In this document: piece after piece, positions 12,836 through 19,122 of the stretch
Layout: every line of letters begins with the position of its first letter
How positions within the stretch are numbered: the stretch's first letter is position 1
Source: an uncultured Clostridia bacterium
GTDB taxonomy: Bacteria; Bacillota; Clostridia; Oscillospirales; Acutalibacteraceae
Length of the DNA: 64,000 nt
Assembly: GCA_946183365.1 (NCBI GenBank)
Contig: CAMHAH010000003.1
Coordinates: 124,001 to 188,000, forward strand
Direction: 5' to 3'
The notes under the pieces: generated by a model
Told to the model about the DNA's origin: nothing
What the model saw: the letters and a program-made list of their open reading frames with translations, nothing else
The model's database searches: none
Position numbers and translations under genes: made by a program

Positions 12836-15800
12836 ATGAAAAGAATAATATCTCTACTGTTAGCGGCTGTCTTTGTAATTGGCTGTTTTAGCGGAACGAT
12901 AGTTTCTGTCAACGCTATTACAGACTATACGATCGGCGAAACTGCAGATGGCATCGGTTACAGCATTGATAACGAGACCGATGAACTGACTGTTACATAT
13001 GCGGATTTCAGTACGACTGATTTGGTGATTCCCGCTTATATTGACGGTCATCCCGTAACCGCTATCGGAGACAACCTGTTGAATGACACTCCTAATCCTA
13101 ATCTGAAGAGTGTTGTAATTCCGGATACGGTTAAGAGAATCGGATTTGGCGCGTTCGGTAACTGCATCAACCTCGAATCTGTAGTTATGTCAGATAACAT
13201 CGAATATGTAGAGGACTATGCATTTCTAAACACCGGGCTGACTAATAATTCCGATCAATGGGAAGACGGCGCTCTGTATATGGGCAAATTCCTATATGGA
13301 GTATCAAAAGATTATGTCGGTGATTTTTTTGTAAAGGACGGTACAAAGGTAATCGGAAATTATTGCTTCGGCGGTCAGAACAGATACGGCTGCGAGAGGA
13401 TGACAAAAGTCAGTATTCCCGATACGGTTGTTCAAATCGGCTTATTCGCGTTTTATAATTGCAAGGGTCTGACTTCGATCGAGATACCCACATCGGTGCG
13501 CAATATCGGGAATTGTGCTTTTGGTAATTGCTCAAATCTCTCTACGATCAGCATTGATACTTCCAAATTGACCTATATCGGCGAAACGATCGTCAGCAAT
13601 ACACCGTTTTATTACGACGAGGATAACTGGCAGGATAATGTGCTTTATCTGGATACAGCGGCTTTATGCGGCAAGAATACGATAACTGATTTAAAGATCA
13701 GGGAAGGAACAGAGATCATTGCCGATTATGCTTTTGCGTGCAATGACAATATTGTTTCCGTCAGTTTACCGAGCAGCTTGAGAATCATCTGTCAGCTTGC
13801 TTTTGATGATTTGCACAGCCTGCCGGAAATCAAACTTCCGGATGGTCTGGAATATATCGCGAATAACGCCTTTGACGGATGCGATCAGCTGACAGAGTTG
13901 GACATTCCCGAGAGTGTAAATCATATCGGTCTGTTTGCTTTTAACCGTACAGATAAACTTGAGAAACTGATCATTCGCAATCCCGATTGTAAGATCATTG
14001 ATAATCACGAGCTATACGCCGGCGGAGCATACTCCGTTAATCCGAATACGACGGTGTATGGCGAAGAGGGTTCCACCGCCGAAACCTTCGCAAATAATAA
14101 CGGTGTGGCTTTTGTCCCGCTGTTTACACAATCGGGAACAACCGGTGGCTGCAAATGGACATTTGATAATGCTTCGGGGATTCTTTCCTTAAGCAGTTCT
14201 TCATATGGAGAGACGGGAAACTATTCTTATGGAAAAGCACCTTGGTTTTCTTTCAAAGATTCAATTAAAGCTGTAGTTGCAGACAACGGTATATATTCTA
14301 TTGGTTCGTATACGTTTACGGATTGTACTTCACTCGAGACCGCGTATTTGCCCGATGTTTATAAAGTCGGAGAATGCGCTTTTGAGGGTTGTACCTCGCT
14401 AAAGAACGTTGAATTATCGTCACATTATTCCAGTGGTTCTTCTATTGGGAAAAATGCCTTTGCGTATTGTTCATCATTAACAAAGATAGCAATACCGTTT
14501 CGAGGTGTAACAATTAGTGAAAAAGCGTTTTACCATTGTGATAATCTACAAACGTTAGGCATATATAACTATTCTACCATTGAGAGCAATGCTTTTGCTT
14601 ATTGTACAAATCTATCTTCGATTTATATGTTGAGTAACGGGAGTCCGTTCTCGGGCACCATTTCGAACAATGCTTTTTCCAATGTCAATGCAGATGTGTT
14701 TTATTCTTATCCGTATTCACCCGGTCAAAGCAGTAGATTTGGAGGCCAATTTACTTATCGTAAAATGACATCAGGTATACTGGGATATAATGCTTTCTGG
14801 AATATTGATCAAGTTACTGAAACTTTGACGATCAGCGGCGAAGGAAAGCTTTTCGGATACTCCGGTGGTTCAGAGCTTCCGTGGATGGATACAAATTACA
14901 GCAGCAGCAGAGCATATGGCTGTGACATTAAAAAGGTCATAATAGACGAAGGCATAACAGAGATACCCTCATATTCTTTTGAATATATGGGTAATGTTGA
15001 ATCTGTTTCTTTACCAAATACGTTACTGCGTCTGGAGCCAAACGCCTTTAACGACTGTGAATCCTTAACTGAAATAACACTCCCTGCTTCGCTTGAATAT
15101 GTTAACGGGACATGGTATTGGTATAGATGTCCGAATCTCAATGACGTTTACTATGTAGGGACGGAGGAAGAGTGGAGCCAAATATATGATAGGTCAATAA
15201 CGAATTATTCCGATCCTATTACTCCCCATTTCCTCGTATATCATCCTGCTACACAAACTTGTACGAAAGCAGGCTATCCTGCACACTATGAATTTGACGG
15301 TACTGCAAAAGATACCTTTTATGATCTGAACAAAGCCGCCATTCCCACTCCCGAGGCGAAAAAGCTCGAACATTCTTTCAGCGGAAAATGGGACAGAGAT
15401 GCGAACAGTCACTGGCATACCTGCTTGCTATGTGGGACAGAGGTATCTGATAAGGCGGATCATGTATTCGATAATTCCTGCGATCCAATCTGCAATACCT
15501 GCGGATATATGAGGACAATTGAGCATCAGTATTCTGCGGATTATACTTCTGACGATGATTCACATTGGAGGACTTGTACTGTCTGCGGAGATAAAACAGC
15601 TTTCGGTTCACACGCTTGGGATGATGGTAAGGTTACAAATGAGCCAAACTGCACGGATACGGGTATAAGAACCTATACTTGTTCTGTTTGCCATAAGGCC
15701 AAGACGGAAACAATTGATGCGAACGGACATACTCCTGTTATTGATGAAGCCAAAGCTCCTACCTGTTCCGAAACAGGTCTGACAGAGGGTAGCCACTGTT

Positions 15801-18406: not shown

Positions 18407-19122
18407 GAACAATCAAAATGAGCTTTCTATCCTTTCTGCTGATGATACTGTTGCTGATGTCGACGACTGCTATCCACGCTTTTGCGACAGAGGATCCTTG
18501 CTTCGACTTGGGAACGGCCATCGGCAAATCAGGCGATACCGTTCGGGTCGAACTGAGGCTGCGTAACAATCCCGGTATTACGGCGTTCAGCGTTTCGATT
18601 GGTTATTCGTCCAAAGATTTGGAACTGATAGATATTGAGAACGGAGGTCTTTTTGATGACTCTGTTTCTGTCGGCAAACTGAATGTTAACCCTGTGACCG
18701 TATCATGGTATGCAGCCGATTCGGAAAACAAGACAGATAACGGAGCAGCGGCAGTTTTAGTTTTCAAAATTCGTGATAATGCAAGCGGATCTTCTGTTAC
18801 GCTGACCTATAATCCAGAGAATGTTTTTGACAACCAACTGCAGAATAAAGAGTTTTCCGTGTCTGATGGTTTCGTTTATATCGGCGAGAAACCGACTGAT
18901 TTTCTCCTCGGAGATGCGAGCGGAGACGGGATCATTGAAGTCACGGACGGAACCTTTCTCCAGCGCGATATCGCCTTGATCGAAACACCTTACACTAAGA
19001 CAGAGCTGCTGCGCGGTGATGCCGATCAGAACGGAAAGATAGAGATCTTTGATGTTACCGCTATCCAATACTATCTGGCAAATATGAAAACGCAGTTCCC
19101 GATCGGAACGAGAATAGAATAA
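18403..19122 (+). CDS. secreted cohesin-like plus dockerin protein
   Basis: ATGA overlap with the upstream stop; cohesin-like IGKSGDTVRVELRLRNNPGITAFSVSIGYSSKDLEL; dockerin LGDASGDGIIEVTDGTFLQRDIA...RGDADQNGKIEIFDVTAIQYYLA. Confidence 0.85.
   Translation: MRTIKMSFLSFLLMILLLMSTTAIHAFATEDPCFDLGTAIGKSGDTVRVELRLRNNPGITAFSVSIGYSSKDLELIDIENGGLFDDSVSVGKLNVNPVTVSWYAADSENKTDNGAAAVLVFKIRDNASGSSVTLTYNPENVFDNQLQNKEFSVSDGFVYIGEKPTDFLLGDASGDGIIEVTDGTFLQRDIALIETPYTKTELLRGDADQNGKIEIFDVTAIQYYLANMKTQFPIGTRIE

What the first reader, a model, noticed from the sequence alone, without database searches (positions are those of the whole stretch)
12836..19122. Mobile two-gene operon encoding a giant LRR/Cys-repeat/beta-helix/cohesin/dockerin protein plus a cohesin/dockerin partner
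The ~1857-aa secreted protein carries BspA-like LRRs, a beta-helix-like stretch, a dozen or so three-Cys modules, a cohesin-like domain and a terminal dockerin. It overlaps by ATGA with a second secreted protein that also has cohesin-like and dockerin regions. Seen: motifs, coupling, location inside an integrative element. Established: dockerins bind cohesins to build cellulosome-type assemblies. Inference: having both modules in each partner could allow chain-like or co-assembled surface structures, spread horizontally as element cargo. I know of no described mobile system of this layout, but could not search.
Basis: partly seen in the sequence, partly recalled or inferred. Interest (0 to 1): 0.85.

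Follow-up and report, generated by a model that had tools for sequence, protein, structure and literature searches.

The report
Mobile LRR surface protein with docking adaptor
A small mobile DNA element in a Ruminococcus-type gut bacterium carries a gene pair for a giant surface protein and a matching plug adaptor, which probably lets the newcomer clip onto the host cell's existing cohesin-dockerin docking system; the parts are known, but finding them packaged as swappable mobile cargo appears new.

Summary
ORF1 (12836-18406, 1856 aa) has BspA-type LRRs, 12 CxxC motifs in a Cys-repeat array, a cohesin and a dockerin; ORF2 (18403-19122, 239 aa) has a cohesin and a dockerin. They overlap by ATGA. 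Both cohesins pass Pfam's cut-off and all top PDB fold matches are cohesins. The pair lies in a 16.9-kb tRNA-Ala integrative mobilizable element bounded by a perfect 46-bp repeat. A ~90% identical sister element has a type I restriction-modification system in the same slot, so the pair is exchangeable cargo. A relative of the pair sits in the same slot of a diverged element with a serine recombinase, and others lie near further relaxase/integrase genes. ORF1-type dockerins ('NMKD') are rare: 2 of 63 in this genome. Their 14 best matches genus-wide lie beside, or in one cluster with, a small cohesin gene. Dockerins on the partners are of the resident 'DATxIQRYLA' type. Best model: ORF2 is a monovalent adaptor scaffoldin (works like ScaC) that mounts the giant on resident anchors. 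The adaptor idea is known; the mobile giant-plus-adaptor cassette with mosaic, swappable LRR heads is a new variant. Module binding and element transfer were not tested.

The parts
10742..10787 (+). left end repeat (att): 46-bp perfect copy of the 3' part of tRNA-Ala
   Evidence: exactly two copies in the whole genome
27632..27677 (+). right end repeat (att), overlapping the 3' part of tRNA-Ala(CGC) 27633-27708 (-)
27633..27708 (-). tRNA-Ala (CGC), integration site
12836..18406 (+). ORF1, giant secreted protein, 1856 aa: signal peptide, LRRs, Cys modules, cohesin, class A dockerin
13013..15235 (+). BspA-type LRR head of ORF1 (about residues 60-800, approximate bounds)
   Evidence: LRR_5 6e-90 in six stretches, LRR_8 at 707-749
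15422..17773 (+). Cys-repeat stalk of ORF1 (residues 863-1646, 12 CxxC), with a beta-helix-like insert at about residues 1096-1330
   Evidence: the insert is absent from P0056; no Pfam family for either part
17819..18205 (+). cohesin of ORF1
   Evidence: 34.3 bits, cut-off 24.1; fold:
18218..18382 (+). dockerin of ORF1, class A (two near-identical INMKDxVxxQQYIN repeats)
18403..19122 (+). ORF2, partner / adaptor, 239 aa: signal peptide, one cohesin, class B dockerin
18505..18852 (+). cohesin of ORF2
   Evidence: 35.6 bits
18907..19077 (+). dockerin of ORF2, class B (resident type)
19718..20533 (-). element backbone: sigma-factor-like protein
   Evidence: weak sigma-70 matches; conserved in sister elements
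20526..21686 (-). element backbone: DUF6076 protein
21883..23697 (+). element backbone: 604-aa protein without a family
   Evidence: conserved in sister elements (52-95%)
24196..24468 (+). MobC / NikA-like mobilization protein
24472..25689 (+). MobP-type relaxase
26104..27381 (+). tyrosine integrase
11140..12445 (-). HTH protein (11140-11787) and DUF3990 protein (11768-12445), probable stability pair of the element
   Evidence: conserved in sister element L094

Best explanation
The operon is an exchangeable cargo cassette of small mobilizable elements. It encodes a giant LRR surface (probably adhesive or ligand-binding) protein and its dedicated monovalent adaptor scaffoldin. Proposed mechanism: both proteins are secreted. 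The giant's C-terminal dockerin, of a class rare in the host, binds the cohesin of the co-translated partner. The partner's own dockerin, of the class carried by about 60 resident proteins, plugs into the host's chromosomally encoded membrane-anchored cohesin proteins (for example the cohesin+TM proteins on contig C1). So the element brings its own converter plug and does not need to match the host's docking code with the giant itself. The giant's own cohesin offers a further, optional docking site. Shown here: domain content, operon, cargo swap, recurrence, dockerin class split, head swapping. Inferred: which cohesin binds which dockerin, surface display, function of the LRR head.
For: (1) Dockerin classes: of 63 dockerins in the genome only the window giant (+77 bits) and the C10 giant (+32.5 bits) score as class A with a model built from other genomes; both sit beside one of the small cohesin+class-B-dockerin genes. 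(2) Genus-wide (161 genomes) class A dockerins occur at 20 places; the 14 best all have a cohesin gene adjacent or in the same cluster, the 6 weakest none. (3) Dockerins on partners of this family are class B; partners lacking one carry a basic C-terminus, a TM tail or SLH repeats, i.e. other ways of attachment. (4) L050 and L059 encode a cohesin+TM protein, an adaptor (cohesin + class B dockerin) and giants side by side. (5) Partner cohesins form one clade (95/87), giant cohesins group apart: co-inherited pairs. ATGA overlap kept in five genomes. (6) Natural swap: P0061 shares 74% of the LRR head but ends in a class B dockerin. (7) Mobility: sister element L094 has the same backbone and ends but HsdM/S/R in the slot; G162 has the pair in the same slot of an element with a serine recombinase.
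Against: No binding evidence. Class assignment from sequence does not prove specificity. The giant's cohesin has no assigned partner. Resident anchors (C1) are divergent and one scores below the cut-off, so their binding of class B dockerins is a guess. Five of the class A loci examined (G005, G018, G056, G164 and C10) show no mobile gene in the DNA read. Transfer or excision of the element was not tested. A lipobox-like VIGC in the ORF1 signal peptide could mean separate lipid anchoring.
Confidence: 0.6

Rival explanations
1. Self-assembling chain or mesh: the giant's dockerin binds the giant's own type of cohesin on the next copy, so the pair builds polymeric surface fibres; the partner caps or branches them.
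For: Cohesin and dockerin both in one chain, with only a few residues between them, so pairing would have to be intermolecular. In R. bromii, Amy4 carries both modules and is proposed to self-aggregate (PMC5814915).
Against: Same-layout giants at C10, L063 and one L050 gene keep the class A dockerin but lack the cohesin, whereas the partner cohesin is always present.
Confidence: 0.17
2. Reverse docking: the partner's cohesin recruits resident class B dockerin proteins and the giant's class A dockerin binds a resident anchor, so the operon redirects host proteins onto the giant.
For: About 60 resident class B dockerin proteins and few resident cohesins.
Against: The class A dockerin's 14 best matches track the local small cohesin gene, not a resident anchor; partners with TM or SLH tails look like acceptors for the giant.
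Confidence: 0.12
3. The cohesin-like modules are structural Ig-type spacers with no dockerin binding, or X-module-like companions of the dockerin; the proteins are ordinary secreted LRR proteins.
For: The cohesin fold is also found in non-cellulosomal proteins (own knowledge; 2xdh and 2jh2 among the matches); the giant's module directly abuts the dockerin as X modules do.
Against: Best fold matches are mostly dockerin-binding cohesins (OlpC, OlpA, CipA, R. flavefaciens ScaB/ScaC); consistent pairing with a distinct dockerin class.
Confidence: 0.1

Closest known systems
ScaC and other monovalent adaptor scaffoldins (R. flavefaciens; PMC5301203, PMC4081043, PMC11557425)
   Same: One cohesin plus one dockerin in a secreted protein; the dockerin belongs to the main class while the cohesin is inferred to accept a different dockerin class (type switching).
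   Different: ScaC is encoded in the chromosomal sca cluster and adapts many enzymes; ORF2 is encoded in an operon with one giant LRR protein, rides on a mobilizable element and has no sca cluster around it.
R. bromii Amy4 (Sca1), amylase with cohesin and dockerin in one chain (PMC5814915)
   Same: Functional head plus cohesin plus dockerin in one protein, proposed to self-aggregate or recruit others.
   Different: Amy4 is a conserved starch enzyme present in all five strains compared; ORF1 is a mosaic LRR protein on a mobile element with a paired adaptor.
LRR-dockerin proteins of R. flavefaciens FD-1 (PMC2930009)
   Same: LRR proteins that carry dockerins.
   Different: In the passages read, not described as paired with a dedicated cohesin partner or as mobile cargo.
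BspA-type LRR surface proteins
   Same: LRR_5 repeats (6e-90).
   Different: Probable attachment through a dockerin instead of a sortase or other anchor.
MobP integrative mobilizable elements at tRNA genes
   Same: Integrase, MobC, MobP relaxase, tRNA-overlapping end repeats, variable cargo.
   Different: The cargo is a cohesin-dockerin surface cassette instead of the restriction-modification or other genes seen in its relatives.

Membership tests
Cohesin (PF00963) | profile score above curated cut-off | tested here: met
   ORF1 34.3 bits, ORF2 35.6 bits, cut-off 24.1
Cohesin (PF00963) | cohesin fold | tested here: met
   models match only cohesins among the top 50 PDB hits; ORF1 C-terminal model pLDDT 85; ORF2 model is weak (61), good only over the cohesin
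Cohesin (PF00963) | binds a dockerin | not testable with these tools
   no complex prediction or assay available
Type I dockerin (PF00404) | two calcium-loop repeats, score over cut-off | tested here: met
   ORF1 51 bits; ORF2 19.6 alone, 23.1 in context vs 22.9; both repeats visible
Monovalent adaptor scaffoldin | secreted protein with one cohesin and one dockerin | tested here: met
   ORF2
Monovalent adaptor scaffoldin | its dockerin class differs from the class its cohesin accepts | tested here: inconclusive
   ORF2 dockerin is class B, neighbouring giant dockerin class A; binding not measured
Cellulosome (Ruminococcus sca system) | sca gene cluster and dockerin-bearing plant-wall enzymes at the locus | tested here: not met
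   no enzyme domain in ORF1/ORF2; locus is a mobile element; ten resident dockerin proteins scanned are mostly LRR, CotH, peptidase or carbohydrate-binding proteins, one GH3
BspA-type LRR protein | LRR_5 repeats | tested here: met
   6e-90, six stretches
Integrative mobilizable element | integrase, relaxase, end repeats, no conjugation machinery of its own | tested here: met
   no large transfer ATPase among the ORFs
Integrative mobilizable element | excises and transfers | not testable with these tools
   needs a circle PCR and mating assay

The most novel reading that the evidence does not exclude
A widespread class of plug-in surface cassettes: mobilizable elements trade giant surface proteins with interchangeable LRR heads on a shared cohesin-dockerin tail, each with its own adaptor that converts a private dockerin code to the host's common one. 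The gut bacterium's cohesin-dockerin system would then act as a general mounting rail for horizontally acquired surface proteins rather than as a cellulosome.
Probability: 0.4. Interest if true: 0.78.

Novelty: new variant of a known kind. Interest (0 to 1): 0.62.

Why it matters
Cohesin-dockerin systems are known mainly as chromosomally encoded enzyme scaffolds. If these cassettes work as proposed, the same rail mounts mobile, mosaic surface proteins, and adaptor scaffoldins gain an evolutionary reason: they let foreign cargo fit a resident docking code. It also makes the testable prediction that a class A dockerin binds the cohesin encoded next to it, which would supply new orthogonal cohesin-dockerin pairs.

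Tried and rejected
Phage or plasmid origin: no match to ORF2 in 50,697 phage or 72,556 plasmid records. Unique layout: rejected, the layout recurs. Enrichment of dockerin genes near relaxases genome-wide: 4 of 10 relaxases have a dockerin within 8 kb, by my estimate not above chance (positions); not claimed. Papers joining cohesin, dockerin and integrative conjugative element: none in the library; absence there is not proof. The ORF2 structure is too weak over the dockerin to judge the intramolecular arrangement. My guessed tRNA-Ala pattern for the att site gave nothing; the repeat was found by comparing the two ends directly.

Full report
What is there. ORF1 (12836-18406, 1856 aa) and ORF2 (18403-19122, 239 aa) are intact, on the same strand, and overlap by ATGA. 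ORF1 has a signal peptide, BspA-type LRRs (LRR_5, 6e-90), a Cys-repeat region with 12 CxxC motifs, a cohesin and a C-terminal type I dockerin. ORF2 has a signal peptide, one cohesin and one dockerin. The signal peptides are read from the sequence, not predicted with a program. AlphaFold models of the ORF1 C-terminus (pLDDT 85) and of ORF2 (61, good only over the cohesin) match exclusively solved cohesins among the top 50 PDB hits, including the R. flavefaciens ScaC cohesin.

The element. A perfect 46-bp repeat, present exactly twice in the genome, bounds 10742-27677; the right copy overlaps the 3' part of a tRNA-Ala gene. Inside are a tyrosine integrase, a MobP relaxase, a MobC/NikA protein, and HTH, DUF3990, DUF6076 and sigma-like genes. 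No large transfer ATPase is seen among the ORFs, so this is a mobilizable, not a self-transmissible, element (inference).

The operon is exchangeable cargo. In another species of the genus (L094) the same element, with the same ends, is about 90% identical over 10743-12531 and 19169-27695, but the slot between holds a type I restriction-modification system (HsdM, HsdS, HsdR) instead of the operon. Relatives L099 and L101 hold a dockerin protein and an Ig-repeat giant in the same slot. In G162 (contig CAMVTS010000009.1) a relative of the operon (ORF2-like 45%, giant C-terminal part 43%) lies in the same slot of a diverged backbone (604-aa protein 52%, relaxase 36% identical) that uses a large serine recombinase instead of the tyrosine integrase. 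Pairs also lie close to relaxases and integrases in G185, G041 and G154. A species with an 87% identical ORF1 N-terminus (G049) has it beside a ParE/RelB pair instead of DUF3990. The pair is thus not confined to fixed chromosomal sites, although several relatives show no mobile gene in the DNA read.

Two dockerin classes. The giants' dockerins have the repeat INMKDIVLLQQYLN or a near variant (class A); the partners' dockerins and those of resident proteins read xxDATxIQRYLA (class B). A class A model built only from other genomes picks 2 of 63 dockerins in this genome: the window giant (+77 bits over class B) and an 8402-aa giant on contig C10 (+32.5). Both have a small secreted cohesin + class B dockerin gene next to them. 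If two labels were dealt at random among 63 dockerins, this would happen about once in 1,950 times (my arithmetic, made after seeing the pattern). Across 161 genomes of the genus the 14 best class A dockerins lie beside a cohesin gene or in a cluster with one; the 6 weakest do not.

What the partner is for. Partners always keep a cohesin, but their other end varies: class B dockerin (window, G162, C10 and others), TM tail (L050, L059), SLH repeats (L058), basic C-terminus (L047, L048). This is what an attachment piece for the giant would look like. L050 and L059 even encode a cohesin+TM protein, an adaptor and the giants together. Partner cohesins form one clade (95/87 support) and giant cohesins group apart, with weaker support, and the ATGA overlap is kept in five genomes, as for a co-inherited pair. 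I therefore take ORF2 as a monovalent adaptor scaffoldin that converts class A to class B. Resident cohesin+TM proteins on contig C1 are the likely acceptors, by inference only.

Mosaic heads. P0176, P0177 and P0178 share 98.5-99% of the cohesin-dockerin tail with ORF1 but only 22-25% of the LRR head; P0061 shares 74% of the head but ends in a class B dockerin. Head and tail recombine freely; swapping class A for a direct class B dockerin is what the adaptor model would allow.

Comparison with what is known. One-cohesin-one-dockerin adaptors are established: ScaC binds group 3 and 6 dockerins, while its own dockerin is closest to the main enzyme group 1b (PMC5301203; PMC2930009); R. flavefaciens strains have 5-11 such proteins (PMC4081043), and they form a named class (PMC11557425). 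LRR-dockerin proteins exist in R. flavefaciens (PMC2930009), and R. bromii Amy4 combines enzyme, cohesin and dockerin (PMC5814915). I found no paper on cohesin-dockerin cargo of mobile elements; the library lacks most subscription journals. The cellulosome label is not earned: no plant-wall enzyme is encoded here, and ten resident dockerin proteins scanned are mostly LRR, CotH, peptidase or carbohydrate-binding proteins plus one GH3.

Limits. No binding was measured and no complex could be modelled. Dockerin class is a proxy for specificity. Genomes are mostly draft MAGs, so absence of mobile genes near some copies may reflect short contigs.

Noticed in passing
G000:C10:50001-88000 (L044, L045): An 8402-aa secreted protein (CARDB, PKD, Fn3-associated domains) ending in a class A-like dockerin, with a cohesin + class B dockerin partner next to it; G087:C3 has an 8381-aa counterpart. 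Same layout as the finding, far larger.
   Followed up: partly
G000:C27:4300-31000 (L117, L118): Three related relaxases and five dockerin genes on one 31-kb contig; the three scanned are LRR proteins with class B dockerins. It looks like tandem mobilizable elements each carrying an LRR-dockerin protein.
   Followed up: partly
window 10510-10742: A second, partial att-like stretch (TTTGGTGGAGATAAGC) about 230 bp left of the left end; in sister L094 the full repeat joins the flank at this very point, suggesting an earlier insertion or a small secondary insert.
   Followed up: no
window 59489-60886 (-): Another secreted protein with a class B dockerin, outside the element.
   Followed up: no
L188 (G185:C15:46001-66000): Adaptor with two cohesins followed by a giant whose cohesin and class A-type dockerin are at the N-terminus, between two Mob_Pre-type relaxases and two tyrosine integrases.
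   Followed up: partly
window 12836-12916: The ORF1 signal peptide holds a VIGC lipobox-like motif, and a Cys at the same place is kept in relatives with the same head; it might be a lipoprotein. Not tested with a signal-peptide predictor.
   Followed up: no
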